Source: Rheinheimera sp. SA_1 | Lineage (GTDB): Bacteria; Pseudomonadota; Gammaproteobacteria; Enterobacterales; Alteromonadaceae | Direction of reading: 5' to 3' | DNA: 64,000 bases | Assembly: GCF_001669775.1 (NCBI RefSeq) | Contig: NZ_LXWK01000011.1 | Span: 1 to 64,000, forward strand | In this document: positions 1-30,076 of the stretch, one piece after another | Layout: every line of letters begins with the position of its first letter | How positions within the stretch are numbered: the stretch's first letter is position 1 | The notes under the pieces: generated by a model | Databases searched by the model: none | What the model was told of the DNA's origin: nothing | Seen by the model: only the letters and a program-made list of their open reading frames with translations | Made by a program: the position numbers and the translations under genes

Positions 1-1711
1 CACCGGCCGAGCCATAACGCTTGCCTTGAATAAACTTACTTTCTGAACGACGCAGTAAAGTCACACCATCTTTATCGTACTGATCGCTGAATAGTTCTTT
101 ACCGTCTTCCCAATTAAATTTCCGGCTAAAATAGTGCTTAGTCACACTGCCATCCGGCGCTTTCACACTAGAGAATTTTAGATCCCCGGCGTCAATCCCC
201 GAATTTGCCGGAACAGTAACCTGGCCGGGTGCAAATTTGGACTCACCGGCAAAAGCACCAATATTTTCGGAATAGCTGTAATCCCATTGCATGGTCGGTA
301 AACCAGCACCAGAAATTGTTTTTTTCATCAGGCTGATGGCGTTAAAACAAATATCAATTGCAAAACTGAACTCGTAATTTCTGTCATTCACCGGCCCGAG
401 TTTATGCCGTGGCACATCGGTTCTGCCATGGGTGGTAGAGCGTTTTTCGAAGGTCCCAACCGCCCCATTGGGATGAGTGATAGTCATCGTATGGCTTTGA
501 TTACTTTCATAATTCAAACACTGACCGTAGGTCGTTGTTGATTTATTGTATGCGTTGTAAAACGGACTGTATTTGAAGTCCCAGAACTTCCCGTCCGGAC
601 GGGTGACTTTGCCAAGCTTGGGCGACGCATCTTTATCGATATATGCATAGTTCCAAACCTGGCCATGAGCGCTGACGCGGTTGATGTAATCGTTGCCTTT
701 GATGACTTCATAACCAAAGGCGACTTCCCGGCCATCCGATGATTTTATTGTATCCAGTCGGTTGCCAACATAATTATAGGTAACCCAGTTACCAAACCTG
801 TCTTCAACTTTAGTGGCCAACATAAAGGTATGGTACTGTCGGTAATAGGCTAAAGCAGTAGGTTGGTCCTGACCAGGTGGATCAATTGGCGGTGGATCAA
901 AGGGAACACTGCCGTTAGCCCTGCTTTTACCAATATCAAGACCTCGTACCAGCCTTAATTTGTCAAAGGTATATTTAGTCCCATCGTTGGTGGTAACTCT
1001 GAATCCCTCACTGCCGGATGGTGTGGTAAAACATTCTATCCGCCAGTTTTTATTGGTGGTTCTTGGCGTGGCCGCATCTTTATATAACAGCGTGGCAGAG
1101 CCCTGGCCTGGGATATACAGATTGTCTCCACTCCAATAGTCCTGCACCGTCAAAGTAGATGCTTCGTAGCTGGGCTCTGTGCCAGGATTAAGTGGTCCGC
1201 TACAGGCCTTATTGGCAGCCCAACTTCCGGTGAAGGTGTTGCCATCAATACTGGCCATAGTCGTTGAAATATAAGGCAGCTCAAGACTCCAATCCCCGAA
1301 TAGCCGGTTGGCCGAATACTCAACATCCGCGGTTCCGGTGATCCGGGTGATGGCAACTGGAATTGCAAAGTTCCCGGGCACTTGAATATCTGTTTGTTTA
1401 AATGACAGCGCGCCGGTATTTAAATCAATTTGCTCACCCATTAAATCAGTGGTTTCAGCAGTGATTTCATAACTGACATTAAACTGCTTCAAGATATTTT
1501 TTCTTGAATGTTCCATTTCAGTTTCAACAATGGTCTTGGGATTTGCAGAGCTAAACTTTACCGGCCTGAAAGCAGCATTTCTGCCACGGTCGTGATAATC
1601 AACAACACTATTGCGAAGTTCTGCATTGGCGTGGCCGTTATCCCCTGCATAGGCATTGAGGCATGATCCAATTAAAACTGACAATGTTCCAATAAGTAAT
1701 TTGTTATTCAT
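1..1711 (-). CDS. RHS/YD-repeat family secreted protein (3' end outside window)
   Basis: The minus-strand frame is open from an ATG at 1711 to the window edge (about 570 codons, no stop), so the protein is partial. It starts with a Sec signal peptide (MNNKLLIGTLSVLIGSCLNAYA, cleavage after AYA). Further on are YD/RHS-like strands, for example WVTYNYVGNRLDTIKSSDGR and FGYEVIKGND, and repeated motifs of the form G-K-V-T-R-P-D-G. In the RHS family these repeats build a large beta shell that encloses a polymorphic C-terminal domain, often a toxin. That C-terminal part lies beyond this window, so no toxin can be claimed. The gene begins 31 bp after the stop of another RHS-motif gene on the same strand, so the two are probably co-transcribed. 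Family assignment is fairly firm; function is unknown. Confidence 0.75.
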   Translation of the reverse strand, partial: MNNKLLIGTLSVLIGSCLNAYAGDNGHANAELRNSVVDYHDRGRNAAFRPVKFSSANPKTIVETEMEHSRKNILKQFNVSYEITAETTDLMGEQIDLNTGALSFKQTDIQVPGNFAIPVAITRITGTADVEYSANRLFGDWSLELPYISTTMASIDGNTFTGSWAANKACSGPLNPGTEPSYEASTLTVQDYWSGDNLYIPGQGSATLLYKDAATPRTTNKNWRIECFTTPSGSEGFRVTTNDGTKYTFDKLRLVRGLDIGKSRANGSVPFDPPPIDPPGQDQPTALAYYRQYHTFMLATKVEDRFGNWVTYNYVGNRLDTIKSSDGREVAFGYEVIKGNDYINRVSAHGQVWNYAYIDKDASPKLGKVTRPDGKFWDFKYSPFYNAYNKSTTTYGQCLNYESNQSHTMTITHPNGAVGTFEKRSTTHGRTDVPRHKLGPVNDRNYEFSFAIDICFNAISLMKKTISGAGLPTMQWDYSYSENIGAFAGESKFAPGQVTVPANSGIDAGDLKFSSVKAPDGSVTKHYFSRKFNWEDGKELFSDQYDKDGVTLLRRSESKFIQGKRYGSAG

Positions 1712-1742
1712 ATCAATCCTTTATTAAAAAATGTCCGGTAAA

Positions 1743-4661
1743 TTAGTTATCTTTCACTTCGCCAAATGGCTTATATTCGGAACGTTTAATCACGTTGCCG
1801 TTGGCGTCGGTTTCAGCAATCACAGAGCCAAGTGCATCGGTATGGAGGTAAATCACCTGCACCGCAGAGCTACTCACTTTAAAAGAAGCAGTGACCGTGC
1901 AAGCCGCGTTGATTGAGCCAGTGTTATACGTCGATCCGGACAAGGTGCCATTGCAGCCTGTGACGGAATTGATCTGATAGCCAGTTGCCGGTGTAACGGT
2001 AAAATTGGTAGTGCTACCTTGCGCTACCGAGCGTGATGCCGGAGAAATACTACCGTTACTGCCCGCGGTTGCAGTCACCGTGTGATTGACCGGATTTGCA
2101 ACAAAGGTCGCACTGACAGTACAGGCACTATTGATTACGCCGGTGGTAAATGTATTGCCAGACAAGCTTCCGCTACAGCCAGAGACGGTATTGATTTTAA
2201 AACCATTATTTGGCGTAACGGTAAAACTGGTAGTGCTACCTTGTGCTACCGAGCGTGATGCCGGAGAAATACTACCGTTACTGCCCGCGGTTGCCGTCAC
2301 CATGTGATTGACCGTATTTGCAACAAAGGTGGCACTGACAGTACAGGCACTATTGATTGCCCCCGTGGTATATGTATTACCAGACAGATTACCGCTACAG
2401 CCGGTTACCGAATTGATCCTAAAACCACTATTTGGCGTGACGGTAAAACTGGTAGTGCTGCCTTGCACTACTGAGCGTGACGCTGGAGAAATACTACCGT
2501 TACTGCCCGCACTTGCAGCTACCGTGTGATTGACCGGATTTGCAACAAAAGTGACACTGACAGTACAGGCACTATTGATTGCCCCTGTGGTATAGGTATT
2601 ACCAGACAGATTACCGCTACAGCCGGTTACCGAATTAATCCTAAAACCACTATTTGGTGTGACGGTAAAACTGGTAGTGCTACCTTGCACCACCGAGCGT
2701 GATGCCGGAGAAATACTACCGTTACTACCCGCGGTTGCAGTTACAGTGTGATAGACAGGATTTGCAACAAAAGTGACACTGACAGTACAGGCACTATTGA
2801 TTGCCCCTGTGGTATAGGTATTACCAGACAGATTACCGCTACAGCCGGTTACCGAATTGATGCTAAAACCACTATTTGGCGTGACGGTAAAACTGGTAGT
2901 GCTGCCTTGCAACACAGCGCGTGAGGTAGGAGAAATGCTGCCGTTACTGCCCGCGGTTGCAGTTACAGTGTGATAGACAGGGTTTGCAACAAAGGAGGCA
3001 CTGACAGTACAGGCGCTATTGATAGCCGCCGTGGTATAGGTATTACCAGAACGATTGCCACCACAGCCGATCACCGAATTGATGCTGGAACCACTATTTG
3101 GCGTGACGGTAAAACTGGTAGTGCTGCCTTGCACTACCGAGCGTGATGTAGGAGAAATGCTGCCACCGGTTCCTGCGTTAGCAGATACCACAAAAGTAAC
3201 CGGGGCTGCATAAATATGCAGTGCACTAGAAGGTCCAAAACCACTGCAGCCACTATAGTTACAGCTACGATACCTTACTTGATAATGACCGATAGTAGAC
3301 AACCGTCCAGTGACAGTAATTGAGGGCCAAACATCATTGGCACCCGGAGCAATGACTGTTGCTATTTCGTCGAAATCGTAACCATTTAAGGTTGCCCAGA
3401 CTTCATAAGTTAACGCCTTAGGATCCCTGGTATTCATCAGATGAACATTAAATGTTTGATTCACGGCATAACTGCTGGCGTCGAGCTGAGGGGCCGTTGT
3501 AGGTCGAAGTGGCATCGACTCGCATTGATTATCAGGCTGCAAATCCGTTCGCGGTAAAATACCAGTAGAAAACTCAATAATAGGGCATTCATTAAAATCA
3601 ATAATCGCGATTTGTGCTGGTTTGTCGAGCTTAGCCGCAGCAGGATCGTGAGGCTGCTGGGTGTTATTGCCGCCTGTGCCGGACGATGCTGCTGCCAAAC
3701 AATATTCTTGGCTGGTTTTTAACAGCGGGTCATACAACCAGCCGGCACAACTTTTGTCGGAGGCTGCACTTTGTTCATCAGCATTGTATAAACGCAGTAA
3801 ATTGGCGCGTTGATCATCCCTACGTGTGACTAGCATGGTGCCAGAGCTTTGATTAAACCATGACAGACCACCGATTTCCGGCGTGATCTCCTGAGCTTTT
3901 GCATTGATAAACTTGCCGCTTTGATCCGACAACACCAGGTAATGCTTTGAATCAGGTTTTTTCGCCAGTGCAAAAATATCGGCAAAACCATTGTTATCAA
4001 AATCACGCACAATGATCCGTGCTTGCCCCTGTTTACCCCAAGCAACCTTTTGTTGAAATTTTTGTTGGGTAGACAAACTGAAATTTGGCAATAGTTTCAG
4101 GATCTGATGCTCGCCACTCACTTTACCTAGTTGCAGGATTTCATCGATGCCATCGTTATCAAAGTCGGCAACATGCAGTTCGTGCTCTGTAACATTGGCC
4201 AGAAATGGCCACTGAGATTTCTGGAATTTGGCAATTGGTCTGGAGAAATCCAGGTTTTGACCATCAAAACGGAATAATTGTGCGGCTTGTTGTTGTGGGA
4301 AAATGACCAACAAACCAGTCATACCATTGGTTTTGCTGCGTAGCGGCAACAATTGAGCTTCAGCAGCAGACCAAGCATGCCCTGAAAGTAGCGCTGGTAA
4401 TTGAATGCTGTTCTCTGGTAGAAATCTCGCCTCAGTGCTGTTTTGATGGCCAAGGATCAGTAACGAAACCGCATCGTCTGACTTAGAATGCAACAGTAGA
4501 TCAGGGGTTTGATCCTGATTAAAATCAAAAAGTATTGGTTGATATTGTTCGTGATGCCAAGGTGACGCTGCGTTTTCGAGTTGTTCTGAGCTTCCTACCG
4601 GGCAGTGCCATAACATCAATCCAAGCAGTAAAAACGTACCATTCCTTCTAACTGTGTTCAT
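1743..4661 (-). CDS. Secreted VCBS/FG-GAP protein with six InlB-type repeats and terminal RHS core motif
   Basis: A secreted or surface protein of about 970 residues. The start at 4661 (MNTVRRNGTFLLLG) is chosen because GGGA lies 6 nt upstream; the frame also extends to 4694. After the signal peptide come FG-GAP/VCBS calcium-loop motifs (FDFNQDQTPD, ADFDNDGIDE, RDFDNNGFAD) and a fibronectin-like stretch. Six near-identical repeats of about 74 residues follow, each with G-S-I-S-P, Q-G-S-T-T-x-F-T-V-T-P and a Cys pair; they resemble the bacterial/InlB-type repeat domain. The last residues form the RHS core signature YLHTDALGSVIAETDANGN followed by YKPFGE, and a stop comes six residues later. 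In ordinary RHS proteins this motif is followed by a variable tip, which is absent here. Adhesin or polymer-assembly roles are possible; function is not known. Confidence 0.75.
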   Translation of the reverse strand: MNTVRRNGTFLLLGLMLWHCPVGSSEQLENAASPWHHEQYQPILFDFNQDQTPDLLLHSKSDDAVSLLILGHQNSTEARFLPENSIQLPALLSGHAWSAAEAQLLPLRSKTNGMTGLLVIFPQQQAAQLFRFDGQNLDFSRPIAKFQKSQWPFLANVTEHELHVADFDNDGIDEILQLGKVSGEHQILKLLPNFSLSTQQKFQQKVAWGKQGQARIIVRDFDNNGFADIFALAKKPDSKHYLVLSDQSGKFINAKAQEITPEIGGLSWFNQSSGTMLVTRRDDQRANLLRLYNADEQSAASDKSCAGWLYDPLLKTSQEYCLAAASSGTGGNNTQQPHDPAAAKLDKPAQIAIIDFNECPIIEFSTGILPRTDLQPDNQCESMPLRPTTAPQLDASSYAVNQTFNVHLMNTRDPKALTYEVWATLNGYDFDEIATVIAPGANDVWPSITVTGRLSTIGHYQVRYRSCNYSGCSGFGPSSALHIYAAPVTFVVSANAGTGGSISPTSRSVVQGSTTSFTVTPNSGSSINSVIGCGGNRSGNTYTTAAINSACTVSASFVANPVYHTVTATAGSNGSISPTSRAVLQGSTTSFTVTPNSGFSINSVTGCSGNLSGNTYTTGAINSACTVSVTFVANPVYHTVTATAGSNGSISPASRSVVQGSTTSFTVTPNSGFRINSVTGCSGNLSGNTYTTGAINSACTVSVTFVANPVNHTVAASAGSNGSISPASRSVVQGSTTSFTVTPNSGFRINSVTGCSGNLSGNTYTTGAINSACTVSATFVANTVNHMVTATAGSNGSISPASRSVAQGSTTSFTVTPNNGFKINTVSGCSGSLSGNTFTTGVINSACTVSATFVANPVNHTVTATAGSNGSISPASRSVAQGSTTNFTVTPATGYQINSVTGCNGTLSGSTYNTGSINAACTVTASFKVSSSAVQVIYLHTDALGSVIAETDANGNVIKRSEYKPFGEVKDN
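1881..3200 (-). repeat. Six tandem 222-bp coding repeats
   Basis: Six consecutive units, each about 222 bp (74 codons), lie within the VCBS/RHS-motif gene. Neighbouring units are nearly identical at the DNA level over long stretches, for example the blocks encoding SFTVTPNSGF and INSACTVS. The first and last units are the most diverged. The pattern indicates recent in-frame duplication, and copy number may vary between strains. Confidence 0.9.
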
Positions 4662-4892
4662 ATCCATTCCCATTGTTGTGACAAAACAATGCAAATGTAG
4701 TTAATTTTAAGAATGTTTTTTGTAAATATTTCAATATCAAATAAATATCAATTTTTTAACAAAAAATTCCACCTCCACAATTTTTCTGCAGAAGTTACTG
4801 CAGGCTTTAGAATAAAGATTGCTTTGAAAAGCATGCTGCGTTATCAATAAAACCAATTCTAGAGTATTCACTCCATTCATCCGGGATCATTA

Positions 4893-6656
4893 ATGGTACA
4901 GGCGCAACATATTGCAGAAGTGATTCTCAAAGGCTTTCGTCGTCATTTCAGCTTGTTCCAGCAAATGACAGCAACAGCCAGGCAGCGCTTTGCCAGCGCG
5001 GACTGGCTTGGCTTTGCCCAGGACAGCTCAGATCGGATTTCGTTTTACGATCAACGGGTACAGGAAACCATCGACCAGTTGGTCAAAGAGTTACCACAGC
5101 ATTGTCTCGATGAAACTTTGTGGCAACAAGTGAAGCAGCATTACCTAAACTATCTGGGTTTTCATCCGCAAGCGGAACTTGCTGAAACTTTTTATAATTC
5201 AGTATTTTGCAGGCTTTTTGATCGGAAGTATTTTCACAATCAGAATATTTTTGTCGAATCTACCCTCAGCAAGCAAAAGTTACCTGCCCCAATTGCCTCG
5301 GTTTATGACAGTTATTTCCCAGCCCAGGACGGTCTGCGGGTTTGTGTGCGAAAAATATTCGCCAGTTTTTCGTTGCCATTGCCTTTTGTCGATTTTGAAC
5401 GCGATATCCGCTTGTTACTACAGGCTTTCCGCCTGCAGTCCAGTCACGGCCGCCACCCGGTGCATCAAATCCGTTTTGATATGCTCAAATCTGTGTTTTA
5501 CCGCAATAAAGCGGCTTATATCGTCGGTCGGGTGGTCAGCCCCGATGGCCAGCAACCATTTATTATTCCGCTGTTACAACTGAAGGTTGCCGAAAATAAT
5601 CTGCTGTATATTGATACGCTGATCACCGAAGCGCAGCAGATGACCATTATGTTCAGCTTTTCCCGCGCCTATTTTATGGTGGAAACTCCGGTGCCATCTG
5701 CCCTGGTGCATTTTCTAAAAGAGTTGTTACCCCATAAAACACTGGCCGAGCTTTACGCCTCGGTCGGGTTACATAAACAGGCTAAAACTGAATTTTACCG
5801 CGAATTACTACAGCATCTGGCGGCCTCGACGGATAAGTTTGTCGCGGCGCCCGGTATTCGCGGTATGGTGATGATGGTGTTTACCCTGCCCTCGTTTCCT
5901 TATGTGTTTAAAGTGATCCGTGACCGCTTTTCCGATACCAAAGCTTTTGGCCGTGATACGGTGAAAGACCGCTATTTCCTGGTTAAAAAGCACGATCGGG
6001 TTGGCCGGATGGCCGACACCATGGAATACTCCGATGTCGCGTTACCGAAAAACCGCTTTGCGCCAGAGCTGCTGGCAGAGTTAACAGAAGCGATCCCGGG
6101 CTCGTTAAGCATCGAAGACGACATGGTGGTGATTTCACATTTGTATATCGAAAGGCGGATGATCCCACTGAATCTGGCATTAGAATCAGCCAGTGATGCC
6201 GAGAAAAGCCGCTTAATGCAGGACTACGGCCAGGCCCTGAAAGACATGATTGGCGCGAATATTTTTCCTGGCGATATGCTACTGAAAAATTTCGGTGTCA
6301 CCCGCCATGGCCGAGTGGTGTTTTATGACTATGACGAGGTGCAATATCTGCTTGATGTGAATTTTCGCACCATCCCACATACCGATAACTGGGACGATTT
6401 ACTATCAAGCGAGCCTTGGTATCCAGTGAACCCAGGTGATGTATTTCCGGAGCAAATTGCCACTTTTGTTACACCACAACCGCAGCTGCGGGCTTTGTTA
6501 TTCGAGGCGCACCCTGAATTATTGGACGCAGCGTTTTGGTGTGAAAAACAACAAAAAATCCGGGAAGGTGTTGTTGAAGATGTGTTCCCGTACCCACTCA
6601 GCCAGCGTTTTCAGCAAACTTCACCTGAAATCGGTCCGGATGTACCAGAGCATTAG
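4893..6656 (+). CDS. aceK: Isocitrate dehydrogenase kinase/phosphatase
   Basis: AceK is the bifunctional cytoplasmic enzyme that phosphorylates and dephosphorylates isocitrate dehydrogenase. It diverts isocitrate from the TCA cycle into the glyoxylate shunt during growth on acetate or fatty acids. The 587-residue length fits the family (about 580). Family-specific stretches are visible: APGIRGMVMMVFTLPSFPYVFKVI in the ATP-binding region around residues 315-340, then DRVGRMADTMEYS and the IPLN/FPGDMLLKNFG/FYDYDE block in the kinase lobe. The start ATG at 4893 gives a normal N-terminus. In enterobacteria aceK follows aceB-aceA. Here neither neighbour is a glyoxylate-shunt gene, so aceK is a stand-alone unit and must act on enzymes encoded elsewhere. 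Confidence 0.95.
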   Translation: MVQAQHIAEVILKGFRRHFSLFQQMTATARQRFASADWLGFAQDSSDRISFYDQRVQETIDQLVKELPQHCLDETLWQQVKQHYLNYLGFHPQAELAETFYNSVFCRLFDRKYFHNQNIFVESTLSKQKLPAPIASVYDSYFPAQDGLRVCVRKIFASFSLPLPFVDFERDIRLLLQAFRLQSSHGRHPVHQIRFDMLKSVFYRNKAAYIVGRVVSPDGQQPFIIPLLQLKVAENNLLYIDTLITEAQQMTIMFSFSRAYFMVETPVPSALVHFLKELLPHKTLAELYASVGLHKQAKTEFYRELLQHLAASTDKFVAAPGIRGMVMMVFTLPSFPYVFKVIRDRFSDTKAFGRDTVKDRYFLVKKHDRVGRMADTMEYSDVALPKNRFAPELLAELTEAIPGSLSIEDDMVVISHLYIERRMIPLNLALESASDAEKSRLMQDYGQALKDMIGANIFPGDMLLKNFGVTRHGRVVFYDYDEVQYLLDVNFRTIPHTDNWDDLLSSEPWYPVNPGDVFPEQIATFVTPQPQLRALLFEAHPELLDAAFWCEKQQKIREGVVEDVFPYPLSQRFQQTSPEIGPDVPEH

Positions 6657-6660
6657 GATT

Positions 6661-7503
6661 TCACTTAGCACCTGACTTTAACCTCTGGCAAGACGTAGTA
6701 TTAACGTCGGCAGGCAAAGCCTGACTTGCTGTCGACATTTCAGGCTCACACACTTCTGCGACGATCTGCTGGTAGTCTGGCTGTGAAAGTTGCTGTTGTA
6801 AGGCTCGAAAACTACGCAGGCTTGATGCAATAACAACCCGATCACTTAACCAACGTGGCAAACCACCGCCGGCATCTGCAGCACCTATGTAGGTCACATG
6901 TACCAGATGATCCGGCAACGACTGCAACAACCATCGAGCATTTATTTGCTTTATCCGGACGGTATTTGTTGCTACCGGCCATTTGTCATCACAGGCAATC
7001 ACAATCATTTCAATTGAATAATCAATATGTTGCTTCCACGTTGAACAGGTCACCATATCACGTTGTTGTAACGGCCAGGGTGTATCAAAAATGGTATGCA
7101 CCCAGTCTTCAAACGGACTGGGGCTGGCAATAATTTTGACTGAATGGGTAGAATCCAGCCATTGACCTGCATGCTCAGTATCCCGGAGCACCTGCAAAAA
7201 TGCCGACATCCGGCCTTTGAACACAAACTGCGCCTTAATTTCTAATACAGGCCGACCATCGGTCTTCGTATCACGGTAACTCATTTCAAATTGTTCTGAT
7301 TTACGGTACAAACGCCAGGTTACCGCTGCTTGCTGAGTCGGTTTTTCTACTTCTGGCGTTATTACCGCAGCAGATTTACTGGCGAGTGGCTCGGTAAAAG
7401 CGCTCAGTTGCACCGATAGCAACAACAGCAGCACTGACCAGCTTTGTCGCCAATAACTTGCTGCTATCAACTTCATTTTGACCAACTTGCGCAGCCTGAA
7501 CAC
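6661..7503 (-). CDS. START-domain protein, exported
   Basis: A 280-residue protein. The GTG start at 7503 is preceded by a good AAGGA six bases upstream; an ATG lies nine codons further in. The N-terminus is basic and then hydrophobic (WSVLLLLLSVQLSA), which fits a signal peptide or membrane anchor. Residues about 60-250 look like a START/lipid-binding-like fold of the bacterial type: YRDTKTDGRPVLEIKAQFVF, then HAGQWLDSTHSVKII, and DTPWPLQQRDMV, a hallmark of this subgroup. Such proteins are expected to bind lipid or another hydrophobic ligand in the envelope, but substrates are mostly unknown. It converges on aceK with only 4 bp between the stops, and no separate terminator is visible there. 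Confidence 0.75.
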   Translation of the reverse strand: MFRLRKLVKMKLIAASYWRQSWSVLLLLLSVQLSAFTEPLASKSAAVITPEVEKPTQQAAVTWRLYRKSEQFEMSYRDTKTDGRPVLEIKAQFVFKGRMSAFLQVLRDTEHAGQWLDSTHSVKIIASPSPFEDWVHTIFDTPWPLQQRDMVTCSTWKQHIDYSIEMIVIACDDKWPVATNTVRIKQINARWLLQSLPDHLVHVTYIGAADAGGGLPRWLSDRVVIASSLRSFRALQQQLSQPDYQQIVAEVCEPEMSTASQALPADVNTTSCQRLKSGAK

Positions 7504-7623
7504 AAATCATCCTTGTTGAAATGTACAAACAGATAAGGTGCCTAAAGTGAACCTTTCCTGCAACAACTGCAAGCGCTCGCGTTTTCACGCTACAATAGCC
7601 AGCGATTTTAAAGGAACTCTGCT

Positions 7624-8322
7624 TTGACTCATCAAAATTCTGTACTGGCCCTGCGGTTACAAGAACTACAACGGACCACCAAACCTTTTAATGCCCGTGG
7701 TAGTAAAGTGGTTCGCTGCGAACATTGTTTATTGCCGCAACCCGATTGCATCTGTTTCGCCAAGCCTTCGCCTTGTGCAAAAAGCGCATTTTTGTTTTTG
7801 ATGTATACCGGTGAATGCTTTAAACCGACCAATACCGGTCGGCTGATTGCCGATGTCGCGCTGGATAACCACGCTTTTGTCTGGGATAGAACAGAGCCGG
7901 ATCCGGCACTACTGGCATTACTCAGCGATCCTGCCTATCAGCCGATTGTTATTTTCCCAACCCAATATGCTGAACCTGAACGCTGCATTCGTCAAATCGA
8001 TGACAACGGCAAAGTTCCATTGTTTATTTTATTAGATGGCACCTGGCGCGAAGCAAAAAAAATGTTCAGCAAAAGCCCCTATCTGAACCAGTTTCCGGTG
8101 TTGGGTATTCAACCCGAACAAGCTTCCAGTTATCAACTGCGGGAAGCTGCGCATCTACATCAGTTGTGCACGGCCGAAGTGGTGATTGAGGTGCTCAAAG
8201 TCGCCAACGACCAAGCGGCAGCCAGTGCCTTAGCCGATTATTTCCATACTTTTCGCAAACATTACATGATTGGCAAGCCGCATTTAAAATTTCAGGCGTG
8301 CTCTGAAGGCAGCGAAAGTTGA
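7624..8322 (+). CDS. DTW-domain tRNA-uridine aminocarboxypropyltransferase
   Basis: A 232-residue DTW-domain protein. Family members transfer the 3-amino-3-carboxypropyl group of SAM to uridine in tRNA (acp3U). Visible features are the N-terminal zinc-type cysteine cluster (CEHCLLPQPDCIC, about residues 33-45) and the name-giving motif region FILLDGTWREAKKMF. Around residues 185-215 is the C-terminal helix region ending RKHYMIGKPHL. Translation starts at TTG (7624), supported by AAAGGAA about 8 nt upstream and the absence of a nearby ATG in frame. The closest E. coli relatives are TapT/YfiP and TuaA/YfiP-like proteins; which of them this corresponds to cannot be settled here, so no symbol is given. 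Confidence 0.88.
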   Translation: MTHQNSVLALRLQELQRTTKPFNARGSKVVRCEHCLLPQPDCICFAKPSPCAKSAFLFLMYTGECFKPTNTGRLIADVALDNHAFVWDRTEPDPALLALLSDPAYQPIVIFPTQYAEPERCIRQIDDNGKVPLFILLDGTWREAKKMFSKSPYLNQFPVLGIQPEQASSYQLREAAHLHQLCTAEVVIEVLKVANDQAAASALADYFHTFRKHYMIGKPHLKFQACSEGSES

Positions 8323-8377
8323 GCAACAGTGTGATATCAGATAAATAAAAGTATAAGTTTTAATAAGTTGGAGAATT

Positions 8378-9790
8378 ATGCAGCATATTGCAATGATTGG
8401 TGGCGGTCTGGCGGGAACCCTGGTCGCGATGCACTTGGTCCGGCATGCACAGCGGCCGCTCTGCATTACTCTATTTGACCAGCAAGCCCAATTTCAAACC
8501 GGCATCGCTTATGCCCAATCAGATTTCCGCCATTTATTAAATGTCGCTGCGGGTAAAATGAGTGCCTGGCCAGATCAACCGCTTCATTTTGTGCAATGGT
8601 TACAGCAACAGCCGGCTTATGCCAATATCGACGGCGCATTGTTGGCACAAACTTATCTGCCGCGCGCTTTGTATGGTCAATACCTGCAGCAGCAGTGGCA
8701 ACAAACGGTACAGGACGCCAGCAGCAAAAATATTCAGCTGAAGCTTTTGGCGGTTTCTGTGACCAAGCTCAGGGTACTGCCAACGTCGATTGCCTTAAGC
8801 AGTGCACTGGGCGAAATGCAATTCGACGCGGTGGTAGTTGCAACCGGTAATGAACTACCGAGACCCCCATTGCCAGCGGCGAGTGGCTTAACGGCAATTG
8901 CCGGTTATCAGCACAATCCATGGCAAGCCGTTACAATCCCTCATTCAAATACACAATCAACCGCAAAACCGCTGCAGCCAGATAGCCGCGTACTGATTTT
9001 AGGTAACGGCCTGACGATGGTCGATACCGTGCTGGCGCTGCGTCAGGCAGGGGTACGCAGCCCGATGATATCGTTGTCGCCACACGGCTATGGCATGTTG
9101 CCGCATCGGGTGTCAGCAGTAAAACTGCCGGACTTCGCCAGCACTCTGGGTGAACATCCTTCACTACGGCAGGCGTTGCGCTTATTTAACCAACAGCGCA
9201 AACAATTGCGACAGCTGGGGATCTCGGCCGAAGGATTGGTTGACAACTTACGACCTTATTCACAGCTATGGTGGCGTGGTTTTTCCAGCGCTGAAAAACA
9301 GTTTTTCTTCAGAAAGCTACGTCATTTATGGGGGGTAGCACGGCATCGTTTGCCACTACAGATCCATGATCAAATTCAGCAACTTCGGCTGCAAGGTGCA
9401 CTGGAAGTCCGCGCGGGGCGGTTATTGAGTTGTCAGCAGCATGACAGTGGTATCGAGGTTCAGTTTATCGCTAAGGGTCAAACGGCACCAGAAGTGCGGC
9501 AAGTTGATCATATTATCAACTGCACCGGTCCAGAAAACTGTTATCCACGGCTCGCCAATCATATGCTCGCAACCGCCATTGCTGAAGGTGTGCTGGCATC
9601 GGGGCCACTAGAGCTTGGTTTAGCTGCATGTCCAGGATCACTGGCGCTGAAAAATGGCAGCGGCGACATTCATCCTCGGTTGTTCGGGATTGGCTCTATC
9701 CTGCGCGGAGAGCTTTGGGAAACCACGGCACTGAACGAAATTCGCCAACAAGCACACCAGTTGGCCGGTCAGTTACTGTTGCTGGAATAA
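8378..9790 (+). CDS. FAD/NAD(P)-binding protein (YdhS-like oxidoreductase family)
   Basis: A 470-residue protein beginning with a textbook Rossmann dinucleotide-binding motif (IAMIGGGLAGTLVAMHL, residues 4-20). It then has the family-typical GIAYAQSDFRHLLNVAAGKMS and, near residue 210, a second dinucleotide-type motif VLILGNGLTMVDTVLAL. The C-terminal part ends with INCTGPE and LFGIGSILRGELWETTALNEIRQQA, as in the uncharacterised FAD-NAD(P)-binding family (PF13454 type). The substrate is unknown. The start at 8378 follows a GGAG eight bases upstream. The 3' end overlaps the convergent hydrolase gene by 22 bp. Confidence 0.8.
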   Translation: MQHIAMIGGGLAGTLVAMHLVRHAQRPLCITLFDQQAQFQTGIAYAQSDFRHLLNVAAGKMSAWPDQPLHFVQWLQQQPAYANIDGALLAQTYLPRALYGQYLQQQWQQTVQDASSKNIQLKLLAVSVTKLRVLPTSIALSSALGEMQFDAVVVATGNELPRPPLPAASGLTAIAGYQHNPWQAVTIPHSNTQSTAKPLQPDSRVLILGNGLTMVDTVLALRQAGVRSPMISLSPHGYGMLPHRVSAVKLPDFASTLGEHPSLRQALRLFNQQRKQLRQLGISAEGLVDNLRPYSQLWWRGFSSAEKQFFFRKLRHLWGVARHRLPLQIHDQIQQLRLQGALEVRAGRLLSCQQHDSGIEVQFIAKGQTAPEVRQVDHIINCTGPENCYPRLANHMLATAIAEGVLASGPLELGLAACPGSLALKNGSGDIHPRLFGIGSILRGELWETTALNEIRQQAHQLAGQLLLLE

Positions 9791-10548
9791 AAATCAACGG
9801 CCTGCTGCAGTACCCAAGCTGGCGCGTCCAATGCTAAATCATGGCCGGCACTTCTATGCAGCAACAACGGCACCTGCCATCGATCTGCCATCCGCTGACT
9901 GGCTTGCCAATCAACCAACCGATCGGCCCTGCTGGCCAATAACAATACCGGACAATGGGGTTTCGCCGGTAATCGAAAGCGACTTGCCGCCACCAACTGC
10001 CGTAGTACATCTAATTTACGCACCGGTCTTTCCTGCGCAATAAGCTGCCAACTCGCTAACTGTTGCTGCCGCAACTTCAGGTTGTTCGCAGTGAGTTGTA
10101 AAATAAGCTGCTCGCGCTTTTGCACCGAAGCAAACAAAGCTTGCACCACCAGCGGATAACTTCGCCATTTTAGTCGTTGATAAAAGGGCGTTAATCCGGC
10201 GCTACTGCTATTGATCAGCAATAACGAAGCGATCTCTCGCGGATACTGCGCCGACCACTCCATAGCCACCATAGCGCCTAGCGACATCGCCAGTAAATGA
10301 CAAGGTCCTTGCTGTAATAACGCCAGTCGCGAGCGCAACTGTTGCACCATTTGCGAAATATTTGCCGGAGCACTTTCATGCCGCGCCTGCCCAACGCCTG
10401 GCAAATCCAGCGCCAGCACCGGGTTTACCACTGCGCGTTGCAACTGTCCGATAAAATCGCCCCAGTGTGCTTGTTCCCGCGACAACCCGCGCAGTAATAC
10501 GATAGGAAGCACCTTGCGTGGCTCACCTGAAACACCGGTTAATACCAT
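9769..10548 (-). CDS. Alpha/beta-fold hydrolase
   Basis: A 259-residue hydrolase. The oxyanion-side strand and loop read IVLLRGLSREQAHWGDF. The nucleophile elbow is AMSLGAM near residue 89 (Ser in A-x-S-x-G, a variant of G-x-S-x-G). The late acidic and histidine positions are in LLASRADRLVDW and SAGHDLALDAP. There is no signal peptide, so it is probably cytoplasmic. Its start lies inside the end of the upstream M14-peptidase gene (10 bp overlap), which indicates translational coupling. The pair could process a common ester or amide substrate, but nothing in the sequence says which. Confidence 0.72.
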   Translation of the reverse strand: MVLTGVSGEPRKVLPIVLLRGLSREQAHWGDFIGQLQRAVVNPVLALDLPGVGQARHESAPANISQMVQQLRSRLALLQQGPCHLLAMSLGAMVAMEWSAQYPREIASLLLINSSSAGLTPFYQRLKWRSYPLVVQALFASVQKREQLILQLTANNLKLRQQQLASWQLIAQERPVRKLDVLRQLVAASRFRLPAKPHCPVLLLASRADRLVDWQASQRMADRWQVPLLLHRSAGHDLALDAPAWVLQQAVDFYSSNSN

Positions 10549-11567
10549 AACTCCCCCGCTTCGCTGGCATTGCGGCTACTGACCGATGACAACCAATCCG
10601 GTGCAGCGGCTGTGGCATGCAGCAAAAAATCAAATAAAATCAGATGCGAGCGCAATACTCTTTTAATACGATGTGGTTTTACCGGATGAAACAAACCGTG
10701 ACTTCGCAGCAATTGAAATGGGTTTTTTCGTACCCAATTCCAGCTGCCCATTTCCAGTGTCAGCGGTAAAAAAGTAGGAGCATCCGCGATGCCTGCCCCG
10801 TTTATTACTGAAGGTTGCTGTGACAAATCGTATAAATAATCCCATAAATCGCCATGACACAAATAATGCCGGCTTTGCGGTTCAAAAATGTAATTTTGCT
10901 GCGGATAAGTCTGGAAAAACAGTTCACGTAAGCGGTGCATCTGTGCCAGATGAGCGATGGGCTGCAGCGCGGATTTGGCATATGGAAACCACAGACGGTC
11001 GGTGCGGCCAAAGCCTGAATGACAATCCAACGCCAGTACAAAAGGCGCTTTGAACAACTGCTGCACATACGCAATCACCCAGCCGGTTTCTTGCTGCAAC
11101 TCACCCGCAAGCCCGCGATACCAGGGCAAACGTTTTGAATACCTTTGCCCGCCAAGCAACCAGGCAGCTTTTTCGGTACAATCGATTGGCGCATTTCGCA
11201 TTAAATCAACATGATGCTGATTTGAACGCCAGCCGAGCGCCATGCCAGACGGATTAATCAATGGCAGTAAACAAAGCTGAACTTTATCGAACAAAGCGGC
11301 AAAATTCGGGTCCCACTGCAAGCGACTGCACAGGCCTTCCAAAAATGCCAACAGCACTTGCGTGCCGATCCGCTCCAGACCGTGCACACCAGCGGTCAGC
11401 AGCAGTACCGGCTTGTGCGGTGCCGCCAAGCCTACGGTAACAGCGTAAATGGGTAATTGTTGTTGCTGAAAATCAATCAGCCCCAGCACTTTGGATTGCA
11501 CCAATTCTGGCGCACTGCGTAGTAGCAGTTCCAACTGATGTAGTTCTGGCAGCGAATATGCAACCAT
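10539..11567 (-). CDS. M14-family zinc carboxypeptidase-like protein
   Basis: A 342-residue protein with the metal-site pattern of M14/AstE-like zinc peptidases. An H-x-x-E is in TAGVHGLERIG (about residues 57-66), the third ligand histidine is in ALDCHSGFG (about 175-185), and a candidate catalytic glutamate is in LTLEMGSW near residue 270. The conserved LINPSGMALGWR segment fits the same fold. No signal peptide is visible, so the substrate is probably intracellular. The ORF is followed with a 10-bp overlap by the alpha/beta hydrolase gene. Specific substrate is unknown; assignment to a deacylase (AstE/AspA-like) rather than a true carboxypeptidase is possible. Confidence 0.75.
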   Translation of the reverse strand: MVAYSLPELHQLELLLRSAPELVQSKVLGLIDFQQQQLPIYAVTVGLAAPHKPVLLLTAGVHGLERIGTQVLLAFLEGLCSRLQWDPNFAALFDKVQLCLLPLINPSGMALGWRSNQHHVDLMRNAPIDCTEKAAWLLGGQRYSKRLPWYRGLAGELQQETGWVIAYVQQLFKAPFVLALDCHSGFGRTDRLWFPYAKSALQPIAHLAQMHRLRELFFQTYPQQNYIFEPQSRHYLCHGDLWDYLYDLSQQPSVINGAGIADAPTFLPLTLEMGSWNWVRKNPFQLLRSHGLFHPVKPHRIKRVLRSHLILFDFLLHATAAAPDWLSSVSSRNASEAGELWY

Positions 11568-11673
11568 GGGCCGTCTCCGCGAAGCTTTGCATCAGCTTAA
11601 AGCAGGAGATCTGACCCAAGATGGCATTTTGATGAATTTTCAAACATTTGGCACTACAGGCAGACTATGCCAT

Positions 11674-11748
11674 AGTGCGATTGAGAACAGTGCGATTGAG
11701 AGCAGTGCGATTTTGATCTGTGCAGTTTTGATCAATGTAATTTCGACC
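11674..11748. repeat. Five degenerate 15-bp tandem repeats
   Basis: Five head-to-tail 15-bp units (the first three begin AGTGCGATT) occupy the region between the divergent M14-peptidase gene and the small lipoprotein gene. The first three copies are closely alike and the last two have drifted. The array ends 15 bp before the lipoprotein ATG at 11764, so changes in copy number would alter promoter or leader spacing. Confidence 0.85.
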
Positions 11749-11763
11749 AGATGGGAGCCAAGA

Positions 11764-11994
11764 ATGACCCGAACTTTGAGTAGTATGCTGCTGTTGCTAC
11801 TGCTGCTGTTTCTGCAAAGCTGTACCGTCGCCAAACGCGGCAGCGAAGAATATTGGTACAACAAGATGGTTGCCGAGCAACGTGCCCAGTGCAGTCTGTT
11901 GCCAGAACCACTGGCTGGCAGTTGTTTAAAAGACGTTGCGGCCAAGAGCTATCAGGATTTTGTCAAAAACCGCCAGTTGCCAGCTGTGAAATAG
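11764..11994 (+). CDS. Small predicted lipoprotein
   Basis: A 76-residue protein with a leucine-rich signal sequence (SSMLLLLLLLFLQSC) ending in a lipobox-like LQSC, so the cysteine near residue 20 is probably lipidated. The mature part is about 57 residues with two further cysteines (QCSLLPEPLAGSC) that could form a disulfide. The start at 11764 is preferred because GGGAG lies upstream and because the signal peptide then begins at the N-terminus. The same frame runs back to 11566, but that extension is made of the 15-bp repeats and is probably not translated. No family is recognised. Confidence 0.62.
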   Translation: MTRTLSSMLLLLLLLFLQSCTVAKRGSEEYWYNKMVAEQRAQCSLLPEPLAGSCLKDVAAKSYQDFVKNRQLPAVK

Positions 11995-12059
11995 CATCGT
12001 TTTTTTGCCTTTGAAAACTAGCCTTGATTCTGTTGGTCACCACAACCGGAGCAGCGGCG

Positions 12060-12572
12060 TTACCGCTTCGGTTCCGTGTAATAGTCCAGCCATTTTTGGG
12101 TATCCGCCGACAAAATTTGCTTCAGTGTTACTAAGCCAGCTTTTTCCAGGATCTTTTTGGAAGCCAGGTTATCCGGCGCCACAATGCCAACAATCTCCGG
12201 CAGTTTCAGCACATTTTTGCCGTATTGGTACACAGCCAAAGCCGCTTCTGATGCGTAACCACGACCACTAAATTCCGGCAGCAACGCATATCCGACATCC
12301 GGAATGCCAAGATACTCACGGTACACTAATCCAGCCAGACCAATATTAACACCATCAGATTTACGCACCAGCCGGTACATGCCAAAGCCATGTTGCTGAT
12401 AGCTACGCATCGGTCCGTCTTGCAGATATTGCTCTGCCTGTGCCAGCGAACGCACTCCGCGATCGCCAATATTGCGGATAAAGCTTTCTTCGTTCAGCAG
12501 TCGTAGCATCAACGCAGAATCAGCCAGTGTCAGCGAGTAAAAAGCCAGCCGGTCACTTTGTAAAATTTCCAT
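12060..12572 (-). CDS. GNAT-family N-acetyltransferase (RimJ/RimL-like)
   Basis: A 170-residue acetyltransferase of the RimJ/RimL type: N-terminal LQSDRLAFYSLTLAD, then IGLAGLVYREYLGIPDVGYALLPEF. The acetyl-CoA loop is GRGYASEAA (R/Q-x-x-G-x-G/A variant), and the tail VAPDNLASKKILEKAGL is typical of the family. The start at 12572 is chosen because AGAGGGG sits just upstream; the frame extends further to 12623 through the symporter terminator. Substrate cannot be predicted; small molecules or protein N-termini are both possible. Confidence 0.85.
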   Translation of the reverse strand: MEILQSDRLAFYSLTLADSALMLRLLNEESFIRNIGDRGVRSLAQAEQYLQDGPMRSYQQHGFGMYRLVRKSDGVNIGLAGLVYREYLGIPDVGYALLPEFSGRGYASEAALAVYQYGKNVLKLPEIVGIVAPDNLASKKILEKAGLVTLKQILSADTQKWLDYYTEPKR

Positions 12573-12614
12573 TACCCCTCTCTTATCGGTGAAAACGCCG
12601 CCGCTATGATAAAA

Positions 12615-12640
12615 AAAGCCCAATCACGAGACTGGGCTTT
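12615..12640 (-). terminator. Rho-independent terminator after the alanine symporter gene
   Basis: An 8-bp stem (AAAGCCCA/TGGGCTTT) with a 10-nt loop is followed on the minus strand by a run of T. It lies 45 bp after the symporter stop and directly before the acetyltransferase leader, so it separates the two transcription units. Confidence 0.85.
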
Positions 12641-12684
12641 AAGTTTTTGTCGCTTCTTATTATAACTTCGGTAAGTCGGTCAAC

Positions 12685-14190
12685 TTACTGTTGTGACTTT
12701 TGTCTTTGTTCTTCCAACCGTTTTTCCCAGAACGTGGCATTTTTGATGCCCAGTTTTACCGGATCAAAGGTAATAGGTCCGCCAGCTTTTTTCTGCGCTT
12801 CATAATCGCGCAAACAGGTAATAGTGGGTTTGTGTAAAAAGAAAATAATCAGGATACCAATCACGTTCACCCAAGCCATCATGCCAACACCAATATCACC
12901 GATAGTCCAGATATAACCGGCACTATTGACGGTGCCATAAGCAACCATAAACATCAGCAGCAGTTTAAAGAACACGCTTGGCAGCTTGTTGTTAAACACC
13001 CGATTTAAATATGCAACGTTAGTTTCGGTGATGTAGTAGTAAGCAACAATAGTAGTGAAGGCAAAGAAGAACAGCGCTAAGCCGACAAACACCTGACCGA
13101 AGTTACCAAACACACTTAATAGCGCCATCTGAGTAAATGCAGCCGAGCCAATTTCTGTACTGGCAGGAAGATTTTGTACGATAAAACTGCCGTCAGTCAG
13201 CGTGCCGACCACGTTATATTGTTGCGTGATTAAAATCATCAGTGCCGTTGCGGTGCAGACCAGCAAGGTGTCGACATAGACTGAAAAAGCCTGCACCAGG
13301 CCTTGCTGTGCCGGGTGGTCAACTTCGGCAGCTGCAGCCGCGTGAGGACCGGTGCCCTGACCTGCTTCATTGGAATATATACCGCGTTTCACACCCCAGC
13401 CAATTGCAGCCCCCAAACCGGCTTGTGCCGTAAACGCATCGGTGAAAATCAATTCAATCACCCCAGGCAGTTTATCCAGATTTAGAAACACCACAATCAG
13501 TGCCATGACGATATAACCCAGCGCCATAAATGGCACGACGATTTGCGTGAAATTGGCAATCCGTTTAATACCGCCAAAAATGATAAATGCCAGGGTAATC
13601 AGGATCACAGCCAGCGCGATCAGTTTATAAGTGCCGACGTCACCAAAACTGGTACTGACCATGGTACCGTCACCAAAAATTTGGGTGACGGCGTTACCCA
13701 CGGCGTTGGCTTGCACGCCAGGTAAGAATATCCCGCAACCAATAATGGCCGAGATAGCAAACACCACGGCCAGTGGCCGCCAACCCAGACAACGTTCAAA
13801 ATAATAAGCCGGTCCGCCGCGGTATTCGCCGTTCTCTTCAACTTTATAAATCTGACCTAAAGTCGATTCGGCATAGGCGGTACTGGCACCTAAAAACGCC
13901 ATCACCCACATCCAGAACACCGCACCTGGGCCGCCAAAACCAATGGCAGCAGCGACACCAGCAATATTACCGACACCAACCCGGCCGGACAGCGAAACTG
14001 CCAGCGCCTGAAATGAGGAGATACCTTTATCTGACGCATTGTTATCCAGCATCAGCCGGCACATTTCTTTAAAATGCCGGACCTGGGCAAAGCGGGTCAT
14101 TACGGAGTAAAACAAACCTGCGCCAAGACATAAATAAATCAGTGCTGAACTCCAGACGACATTATTTATGCTGTTTACAATTTCATTCAT
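12685..14190 (-). CDS. Sodium:alanine (AGCS-family) symporter
   Basis: A polytopic inner-membrane protein of 501 residues that imports alanine, glycine or similar amino acids with Na+ (AGCS family, DagA/AlsT/YaaJ). The family signature is visible: GRVGVGNIAGVAAAIGFGGPGA near residues 70-90, then GASTAYAESTLGQIYK, and GWGVKRGIYSNEAGQGTGPHAAAAA around 265-290. About ten hydrophobic segments follow the expected pattern. The ATG at 14190 is preferred to the GTG at 14196 because GAGGA then has an 8-nt spacing. Monocistronic, with a clear terminator downstream. Confidence 0.93.
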   Translation of the reverse strand: MNEIVNSINNVVWSSALIYLCLGAGLFYSVMTRFAQVRHFKEMCRLMLDNNASDKGISSFQALAVSLSGRVGVGNIAGVAAAIGFGGPGAVFWMWVMAFLGASTAYAESTLGQIYKVEENGEYRGGPAYYFERCLGWRPLAVVFAISAIIGCGIFLPGVQANAVGNAVTQIFGDGTMVSTSFGDVGTYKLIALAVILITLAFIIFGGIKRIANFTQIVVPFMALGYIVMALIVVFLNLDKLPGVIELIFTDAFTAQAGLGAAIGWGVKRGIYSNEAGQGTGPHAAAAAEVDHPAQQGLVQAFSVYVDTLLVCTATALMILITQQYNVVGTLTDGSFIVQNLPASTEIGSAAFTQMALLSVFGNFGQVFVGLALFFFAFTTIVAYYYITETNVAYLNRVFNNKLPSVFFKLLLMFMVAYGTVNSAGYIWTIGDIGVGMMAWVNVIGILIIFFLHKPTITCLRDYEAQKKAGGPITFDPVKLGIKNATFWEKRLEEQRQKSQQ

Positions 14191-14401
14191 CAACACATTC
14201 CTCGATTGTTATAATTTTTGCAGCCAGAGTGACCTCTGACTGAGCTGCACTGATATTTCAATGTAGGGTCCCAAAAGGCAGCGGCAGACAAGTGGCATAA
14301 GATACCGAAGTCAATCGGTCAGGCACAGCACTATTTACTGCTGCGATGCCAAAAACAGTGCTTTTTCGTAGCAATTGCTCGCTGATCGGAGCTGTATTTC
14401 T

Positions 14402-15121
14402 CTAATATTCCGGTAATTCTTTTGCCACAGCGCCAAGTTGCCGCATTTGCTTGAGCACCCACTGTTGTCTCTTGTACATATATGGCGAAGGTCGTTGTAG
14501 TAAAAAACGATGTGGGTTTGGCAGCACAGTGACCAGTAATGCGGCCTGTTGCCGGGTTAATTTTGCAGCACTAGTGCGAAAATACTGCTGCGCCGCAGCT
14601 TCCACCCCATAAACGCCAGAACCAAACTCGATACTGTTCAGATACACTTCTAAAATACGCTGTTTGCCCCAGACAGCTTCAATCAGCAGGGTAAAACCAG
14701 TCTCCAGGCCTTTACGCAACCAGCTGCGGCCGCTCCACAAAAAGACATTTTTGGCCGTTTGCTGGCTGATGGTGGAAGCCCCCCGGATTTTTTTACCCTT
14801 GCTGTTATAAACCAATGCTTTTTCAATCGCTTGCATATCAAAACCATTGTGTTCTAAAAACTTCTGATCTTCAGAAGCCACGGCCGCTTGCAATACGTGG
14901 CGGGAAATGTCCTCCAGCGGCACCCACTGGTGCCGCTGCTGATAGTTATGTTTACCCTGCCACCACGCTTCAAGCTGGCGCTCCAGCATCATGCCGGTGT
15001 AGAGCACCGGTACAAACGAATACAACAACACCAGACCAAGCAGCACAGCGCTGCCATAACGCAACAGTTGCAGCAATTTACGCATTAATTTACATAATAA
15101 TGTCGATAAGAATTGGGGCAC
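14402..15121 (-). CDS. mtgA: Monofunctional biosynthetic peptidoglycan transglycosylase
   Basis: A GT51 glycosyltransferase that polymerises lipid II glycan strands at the inner membrane, without a transpeptidase domain. One N-terminal membrane helix (about residues 20-42) is followed by the GT51 motifs: ASEDQKFLEHNGFD with the catalytic Glu, RGASTISQQTAKN, and LEVYLNSIEFGSGVYGVEAAAQ. Length 239 fits the family (E. coli about 242). The frame begins with GTG at 15121; an ATG at 15085 is an alternative, and neither has a strong ribosome binding site. Confidence 0.93.
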   Translation of the reverse strand: MPQFLSTLLCKLMRKLLQLLRYGSAVLLGLVLLYSFVPVLYTGMMLERQLEAWWQGKHNYQQRHQWVPLEDISRHVLQAAVASEDQKFLEHNGFDMQAIEKALVYNSKGKKIRGASTISQQTAKNVFLWSGRSWLRKGLETGFTLLIEAVWGKQRILEVYLNSIEFGSGVYGVEAAAQQYFRTSAAKLTRQQAALLVTVLPNPHRFLLQRPSPYMYKRQQWVLKQMRQLGAVAKELPEY

Positions 15122-15509
15122 GGAAAGGCATCAACGAATAGGTAACTGTAGAAAGTATAAAGAGATCTTTGAACACTGAATAGTCCGCCAGTACTAAGCG
15201 GCAACATACTCAACCCAGCTATTCAACACTTCAGGCAACGGCCTCTGTTAGTGAACAGCAATCAAACAGCCAGGTCGTGACCGTCATCACAATTTTCCGG
15301 CGGAGCGGTCGCGGTTGCGTTCAATTTTATTTACACCAAGCTGAATATTCGGCAGGAATAAAACTTTCCAGATGAACTTGTTAGCGAACATCGGTAATTC
15401 TCCAGCGATCCGCGGCAGAAAAAAGACTGACTGATCTTACAAACATCGCTTTCAATCTGGCTGAATTCTGTTAGACCTAATGCAAAGGAGTGAAAAAAGG
15501 GACTTCGGT
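15122..15509. other. Intergenic region between mtgA and the hybrid kinase
   Basis: About 390 bp between divergent genes. I see no convincing ORF, tRNA, tandem repeat or strong hairpin. It probably holds the two divergent promoters, but no clean -35/-10 pair stands out. The AAGGGA ribosome binding site for the kinase lies at 15497-15502. Confidence 0.5.
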
Positions 15510-30069: not shown

Positions 30070-30076
30070 ACATAAA

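What the first reader, a model, noticed from the sequence alone, without database searches (positions are those of the whole stretch)
1..4661. Split RHS arrangement: an RHS core motif at the end of a repeat protein, followed by a second RHS-family gene
Seen in sequence: the 973-residue protein at 1743-4661 ends in the RHS core signature (YLHTDALGSVIAETDANGN...YKPFGE) and stops six residues later, with no variable tip. A second secreted YD-repeat protein begins 31 bp downstream. Established: in ordinary RHS proteins that signature marks the boundary before a polymorphic, often toxic domain. Inference: these two proteins may be halves of one system, or the first may receive tips by recombination. 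The gene is also preceded by six near-identical repeats.
Basis: partly seen in the sequence, partly recalled or inferred. Interest (0 to 1): 0.72.

Follow-up and report, generated by a model that had tools for sequence, protein, structure and literature searches.

The report
Toxin shell with a borrowed strand
A bacterial RHS toxin lacks one piece of its own protein shell, and that piece sits instead at the end of a separate, adhesin-like protein encoded next door, which suggests that the toxin particle is completed by docking an interchangeable partner.

Summary
The 972-residue protein (window 1743-4661, minus strand) ends in the RHS motif YLHTDALGSVIAETDANGNVIKRSEYKPFGE plus four residues. 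A second YD/RHS gene starts 31 bp downstream and is cut by the contig start. The six repeats lie inside the first protein (InlB-type domains). The 3' halves of this gene and its paralogue are on contigs C5 and C6, with different tips and small downstream genes. Both lack exactly the motif that the first protein ends in. Rheinheimera riviphila has an uncut RHS gene with the same gap, a colicin E5 tip and an ImmE5 gene. Among 59 core-bearing RHS genes, 33 of 38 without the motif have a motif-tailed gene upstream, against 0 of 21 with it (p = 1.3e-11, relatedness not corrected). At all 33 loci the tail carries what the RHS lacks. Three of the five exceptions have an intact tail gene elsewhere in the same genome. 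In a third arrangement, motif, core and tip form a separate protein. Best explanation: a split RHS shell, completed in trans by the C-terminal hairpin of an adhesin-like adaptor. Docking is inferred, not shown. I found no description in the searches listed.

The parts
1743..4661 (-). Donor (adaptor) gene: 972-aa protein with N-terminal leader, FG-GAP match, six InlB-type stretches and a C-terminal RHS hairpin segment
1746..1850 (-). Donor tail YLHTDALGSVIAETDANGNVIKRSEYKPFGEVKDN: the RHS core motif that the RHS protein lacks; 35/35 residues identical to a tail on C22 although 17 of 105 bases differ
1996..3158 (-). 222-bp tandem repeat coding for the InlB-type (Flg_new_2) domains, inside the donor gene
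4134..4295 (-). FG-GAP_3 match (protein residues 123-176)
1712..1742 (-). 31-bp spacer between donor stop and RHS start
2..1711 (-). 5' part (569 aa seen) of the motif-less RHS gene, cut by the contig end; 3' halves of this gene and of its paralogue are on contigs C5 and C6 (which belongs to which is not resolved)
1..127 (.). 127 bp identical to the end of contig C22: probable assembly break at a repeat

Best explanation
This is a split RHS polymorphic-toxin shell. The RHS protein (second gene, continued on C5/C6) keeps the YD shell, the autoprotease core and a variable tip followed by a small gene, but it lacks the segment Y-x-H-T-D-x-L-G-S...Y-x-P-F-G-E that in intact relatives comes just before the core. 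The upstream gene makes a separate protein with its own leader, whose body is built of binding-type modules (in the family: FG-GAP, Ig, cadherin, PKD, InlB, Fn3) and whose last 15-35 residues are that segment. Proposed mechanism: after export the tail pairs into the gap in the shell (strand complementation), which completes the wall beside the autoprotease domain and fixes the adaptor's modules to the particle, where they anchor it or bind a surface. Shown by sequence: reciprocal loss and gain, matching break points, constraint on the peptide, and donors elsewhere in the genome for three of the five loci that lack one next door. Inferred: hairpin structure, export, physical docking, completion of the shell, and the binding role of the modules.
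For: (1) Both 3' halves in the genome read ..YIYLGKELIAKVGSAAALEDKPGYTGH.., without the motif. R. riviphila, with the uncut gene, is the same and has a donor with the same 35-residue tail. (2) Table of 73 shells: motif missing and core present, 33 of 38 have a donor upstream; motif intact, 0 of 21; Fisher p=1.3e-11. (3) Two break points with matching halves: the 8 type I tails all carry P[FY]G and their RHS proteins lack the site; the 26 tails at the 25 type II loci all lack it and their RHS proteins keep a [PA][FYL]G site. (4) On the tree of 67 shells the intact/split state needs at least 8 changes. In 5 independent pairs on well-supported branches the donor goes with the missing motif (mean 4.3 of 5) and never the other way. 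(5) Three of the five exceptions have a donor elsewhere in the genome: G272 and G083 carry donor genes with no shell gene in the 16 kb fetched around them; R. riviphila has one on another contig, beside its other motif-less RHS gene. (6) In the 16 genus genomes of the sample, type I donor tails occur in 7, all with this RHS family, and not in the 2 with intact RHS only nor in the 7 without it; the weaker matches in these genomes are internal to longer ORFs or fragments, apart from one 32-aa remnant on C18. (7) Window and C22b tails: 35/35 residues identical, 17/105 bases different, while the bodies differ in most of their domains (FG-GAP/InlB against Fn3-assoc/CHB_HEX; they share an InlB-type stretch). 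(8) With start codons chosen by a simple script, the RHS start lies within -11 to 0 bases of the donor stop in 22 of 34 donor/RHS pairs and within -11 to +46 in 30 of 34. (9) Toxin identity: Colicin_E5 tip (1.2e-21) and ImmE5 next gene (2.3e-13) in R. riviphila.
Against: Two motif-less RHS genes (L061, L063, from MAGs listed as 87% and 81% complete) have no donor upstream; their genomes hold seven type II tails among the matches but no type I tail was identified. Five independent pairs are too few for a significant phylogeny-corrected test (median p=0.125), and near-identical relatives inflate the Fisher test. The tree is a quick LG+G4 tree. Leaders were judged by eye: clear for many proteins, unclear or not seen for others (for example the scripted RHS starts of L054-L057; donors of L023, L077 and L109 with no start found). 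The type II tail is short (about 14-21 residues). G248 has a donor but its RHS gene is cut before the core. G083 also holds an RHS fragment with an intact motif.
Confidence: 0.78

Rival explanations
1. The tail is a DNA homology handle: a leftover of RHS recombination that keeps a stretch for exchanging N-terminal modules or tips, with no protein-level role.
For: RHS loci recombine. The two paralogues in this genome look homogenised inside the gene (assembly break with 127 identical bases), and tip displacement is described for rhs genes (PMC2935791, passages read).
Against: The tail is conserved as peptide, not as DNA: 35/35 residues identical with 17/105 bases different. No tail was found upstream of any of the 21 intact genes. 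What tail and RHS carry matches at both break points. A donor at another locus is kept in two genomes where the adjacent one is degraded.
Confidence: 0.07
2. The RHS protein has simply lost a dispensable hairpin, and the upstream proteins are unrelated adhesins that picked up a motif by fusion; no assembly takes place.
For: The motif-less RHS proteins are intact ORFs with intact cores and tips. Two have no recognised donor of the right type (L061, L063).
Against: Loss without a donor is rare (2 of 38 unexplained). Type III keeps the motif on a separate core+tip protein in 13 of 14 loci at the same break point; in the 14th (L128) a motif-like start is seen by eye only. Reciprocal presence across at least 8 changes of state.
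Confidence: 0.1
3. The donor is a decoy, chaperone or immunity-like factor that blocks or escorts the shell before export through its tail, rather than a permanent part of the particle.
For: Close gene coupling. Strand-donating chaperones are known in pilus assembly (recalled).
Against: Donors are modular and variable (134 to 1877 aa as listed) with binding-type domains, unlike a chaperone. The missing segment is part of the RHS chain itself in intact relatives.
Confidence: 0.12

Closest known systems
RHS polymorphic toxins (canonical one-chain Rhs, e.g. RhsA of Pseudomonas protegens, PMC8765631, passages read)
   Same: YD/RHS repeats, Rhs_assc_core, PxxxxDPxG autoprotease motif with two conserved aspartates, variable tip, adjacent immunity gene (identified in R. 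riviphila)
   Different: The segment just before the core is absent from the RHS chain and sits on another protein; an N-terminal leader instead of PAAR (no PAAR match in the R. riviphila protein)
TcB/TcC shell of Tc (ABC) toxins
   Same: One RHS cocoon built from two polypeptides; a shell can take cargo encoded at other loci (PMC11067744, title and start of abstract seen in the search listing)
   Different: TcC brings a large part of the shell plus the toxin (recalled). Here types I/II bring only about 15-35 residues, on a protein without a toxin; type III has a much smaller core+tip protein
Dissociated rhs tips / C-terminal displacement (PMC2935791, passages read)
   Same: RHS pieces in separate ORFs at one locus, tip diversity
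   Different: Those are downstream core+tip fragments; the donors are upstream and carry neither core nor tip
Bacterial teneurin-like proteins (PMC13018210, abstract and passages read)
   Same: YD shell with toxic C-terminus, immunity genes
   Different: No split shell or strand donor in the passages found for 'split' and 'strand'
Donor-strand complementation in chaperone-usher pili (recalled)
   Same: A terminal strand of one protein completes the fold of another
   Different: Different folds and pathway; analogy only

Membership tests
RHS polymorphic toxin (second gene) | RHS/YD repeats | tested here: met
   PF05593 in the C6 and C5 halves, E=4.8e-13 and 1.5e-13
RHS polymorphic toxin (second gene) | Rhs-associated core (TIGR03696) | tested here: met
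   C6 74.0 bits, C5 73.4 bits, cut-off 32.5; both match only positions 12-75 of 76
RHS polymorphic toxin (second gene) | PF03527 motif in the RHS chain before the core | tested here: not met
   absent from C5, C6 and L023 by sequence and Pfam; it is at the end of the upstream protein
RHS polymorphic toxin (second gene) | Autoprotease motif PxxxxDPxG and the two aspartates | tested here: met
   PYRFTDPDG and NDPV; columns D1080 and D1107 invariant in 73 rows. The role of such aspartates is from PMC8765631; the match of positions is inferred from the motif. Cleavage itself not tested
RHS polymorphic toxin (second gene) | Variable C-terminal tip | tested here: met
   C5, C6 and R. riviphila tips differ; only the R. 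riviphila tip has a toxin match, Colicin_E5
RHS polymorphic toxin (second gene) | Cognate immunity gene | tested here: inconclusive
   ImmE5 after the R. riviphila gene; the small ORFs after the C5 and C6 tips of the window's genome have no Pfam match, so there it is only position and size
RHS polymorphic toxin (first, window protein) | Core and tip | tested here: not met
   ends four residues after PFGE
Tc toxin BC shell | TcA-type translocation subunit and TcB/TcC pair in one operon | not tested
   no search for TcA was made; TcdB_toxin_midN (PF12256) matches 3 of 34 donors
Strand complementation (works like) | Donor strand physically completes the acceptor fold | not testable with these tools

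The most novel reading that the evidence does not exclude
RHS shells of this bacterial order are open kits: the wall segment beside the autoprotease is supplied by one of several exported adaptors, some encoded at other loci, so that docking both chooses the particle's binding modules and licenses folding of the autoprotease and hence toxin release. It would be a natural peptide-tag coupling system that has arisen or been lost repeatedly, with a mirror arrangement (type III) in which the toxin itself brings the strand.
Probability: 0.35. Interest if true: 0.9.

Novelty: new variant of a known kind. Interest (0 to 1): 0.8.

Why it matters
RHS proteins are usually treated as one-chain cocoons, or as TcB plus TcC. 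If short C-terminal tails complete the cocoon in trans, genes now read as adhesins, hypothetical proteins or RHS fragments are parts of toxin particles; toxin release could be controlled by assembly; and the missing-segment rule gives a way to pair genes across a genome. It also turns the question of what joins secreted RHS shells to their binding domains into a simple binding experiment.

Tried and rejected
Rejected: first protein as a tip receiver (homologues have no tips). Frameshift at 1743 (same order with a separately starting RHS gene in R. riviphila and elsewhere). Tail as DNA recombination handle (silent divergence). Dissociated-tip remnant (no core or tip, upstream position). The C18 class (L013), in which four proteins end in one YD hairpin: I looked for a hairpin missing from its two-gene shell and found none at the junction, so complementarity is not claimed there.

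Led nowhere or limited: viral, phage and plasmid collections were not searched. A two-term paper search for Rheinheimera with Rhs gave nothing relevant in its 4 listings. A last protein search with a short type II donor gave only 7 hits. The family search around G494 matched 7 of 40 genomes, all seen before. L061 and L063 stay unexplained.

Choices that affect counts: of the places listed I fetched 60 stretches, picked by score and open-frame length before their tails were examined. The 20 stretches were picked partly because matches stopped near model position 1306, so type III is over-represented. The table keeps only closed ORFs of at least 1200 aa with a shell score, 73 rows from 86 loci (C5 and C6 are too short to be in it). 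Six rows with partial shells (L108, L125, L126, L127, L131, L132) were left out of the tree. Motif calls use an HMM from 12 intact RHS proteins and regular expressions; a few of the 108 labels look wrong (altered PFG sites counted as type I), and that set is the best 120 of 973 hits to a motif-less query. My note calls the bodies of the window and C22b donors unrelated; that is too strong, since they share an InlB-type stretch, and this report is the corrected version.

Full report
What was checked. The window is the start of contig C1 of a 5.16-Mb, 22-contig genome. The only named locus that the scan of genome contigs gave for the second gene is Rheinheimera riviphila (83% identity). The first gene (1743-4661, minus) encodes 972 aa ending YLHTDALGSVIAETDANGNVIKRSEYKPFGEVKDN. 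Its six repeats are InlB-type domains inside the protein. The second gene starts 31 bp downstream and is cut by the contig end. A paralogue on C22 (86% identical DNA) is preceded by two donor genes in tandem and is cut at the same place. The two contig ends share exactly 127 identical bases, so the break looks like an assembly break at a repeat.

The missing half. Two short contigs, C6 (3444 bp) and C5 (3933 bp), hold 3' halves of two such RHS genes, with different tips and small genes behind them. Which belongs to the window gene cannot be said. Both read ...YIYLGKELIAKVGSAAALEDKPGYTGH...: the segment that in intact relatives stands between 'LIAK' and 'GYTGH' is absent. That segment is what the upstream protein ends in. 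In R. riviphila the RHS gene is uncut (1564 aa): same gap, same tail on the upstream protein (whose start lies outside the contig), a Colicin_E5 tip and an ImmE5 gene next.

Test across genomes. A search of 295 genomes of the family with the 5' part found matches in 59. I fetched 60 stretches from these hits, and later 20 from an order-wide profile search that matched 41 of 394 genomes (how they were chosen is told under Tried and rejected). In 73 closed shells of at least 1200 aa there are four states. Intact motif: 21, none with a donor upstream. Type I (motif and PFG site gone): 13, 8 with a donor. Type II (motif gone, PFG-like site kept): 25, all with a donor. Type III (shell stops just before the motif, and a separate protein, with a leader by eye, carries motif, core and tip): 13, plus L128, whose downstream protein shows a motif-like start by eye only. 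For core-bearing genes, 33 of 38 motif-less against 0 of 21 intact have a donor, p=1.3e-11. Halves match: the 8 type I tails contain P[FY]G and the 26 tails at type II loci do not. Near-identical relatives are among the rows, so the p value overstates the evidence. On a quick tree of 67 shells the intact/split state needs at least 8 changes. Five independent pairs on supported branches give the donor following the missing motif in 4.3 of 5 on average and never the reverse, which is too few to be significant (median p=0.125). Among the 108 core-bearing proteins of the best 120 hits to a motif-less query, 18 were scored intact and 90 lacked the motif.

The exceptions. L065 and L086 have next door a small ORF that keeps only the last residues of a tail, yet their genomes carry an intact donor at another locus with no shell gene in the 16 kb fetched. 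L087 (second R. riviphila locus) has a donor on another contig, beside the other motif-less RHS gene. L061 and L063, from MAGs listed as 87% and 81% complete, remain unexplained: their genomes have type II tails, but no type I tail was identified. Within the 16 genus genomes of the sample, type I donor tails occur in 7 (3 in the window genome, 2 in G223). All seven have this RHS family: six with motif-less cores and one (G248) cut before the core. The two genomes with intact RHS only and the seven without a match have none. All other matches in the genus genomes are internal to longer ORFs, or fragments. One of these, in the window genome, is a 32-aa ORF on C18 that resembles a tail remnant.

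What donors look like. Across 34 donors only H, D and G of the tail are invariant. Bodies carry Ig, cadherin, FG-GAP, PKD, InlB, Fn3 and chitobiase-C-type domains, each in 4 to 9 of 34; listed lengths run from 134 to 1877 aa, some cut or with unsure starts. By scripted starts the RHS start lies within -11 to +46 bases of the donor stop in 30 of 34 donor/RHS pairs. Hydrophobic leaders were judged by eye and are clear in many, not all. The tails of the window gene and of one C22 donor are identical in 35 residues while 17 of 105 bases differ, so selection appears to act on the peptide.

How it may work. In the RhsA structure paper (PMC8765631, passages read) the conserved C-terminal region spirals into the cocoon and seals it, and autocleavage needs two aspartates in the core. 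Aspartates at the corresponding motif sites are kept in the split proteins (columns D1080 and D1107 of A1). In an intact homologue the segment lies in the stretch that aligns to solved Rhs chains just before that core. So the donor would supply wall, not catalytic aspartates. The proposal is that docking completes the wall and attaches the adaptor. Docking itself is not shown.

Novelty. Searches of open-licence full text and passages of PMC13018210, PMC3482391 and PMC2935791 showed no split of this kind; most listed papers were seen only as listings, and subscription literature is not covered. Two-polypeptide RHS shells are known (TcB/TcC), so this is scored as a new variant of a known kind.

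Noticed in passing
L013 (G000:C18:216000-232000), 7332-14215, minus: Four consecutive proteins with differing (partly shared) N-terminal bodies all end in one YD hairpin (YKYDxLGRLxEVTD..YDAAGNRIDVSVVN), upstream of a second RHS class whose shell is itself in two genes (5410-7308, 2870-5398). Similar YD-tailed proteins precede RHS genes in L134, L136, L139, L141 and L145; no missing hairpin was found at the junction.
   Followed up: partly
L105, L107, L108, L118-L123, L125-L127, L131: Type III arrangement: RHS shell ends just before the motif, often with an extra Ig/Fn3-like end (by eye), and a separate protein brings motif, core and tip; L121 and L131 have two such tip genes behind one shell.
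   Followed up: partly
L021 (C5) 842-1126, minus: A short ORF behind the tip and the small gene repeats a piece of the RHS shell (EGFVGNAGNCTDYSNVNSSWVTLVNDNLG): possibly a remnant of earlier tip displacement.
   Followed up: no
L022 (C16:88000-107000) 3005-16005: A 3484-aa RHS protein with a long N-terminal part, followed by a 739-aa RHS copy with another tip.
   Followed up: no
window 29820-30073: A 125-bp unit repeated twice, 96% matches.
   Followed up: no
L177 8025-9533 and L178 7316-8827 (minus): Donor genes with intact type I tails and no shell gene in the 16 kb fetched around them.
   Followed up: yes
G000:C18:225113-225190 (L168): A 32-aa ORF that looks like a degraded type I tail, lying within the C18 RHS cluster.
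   Followed up: no
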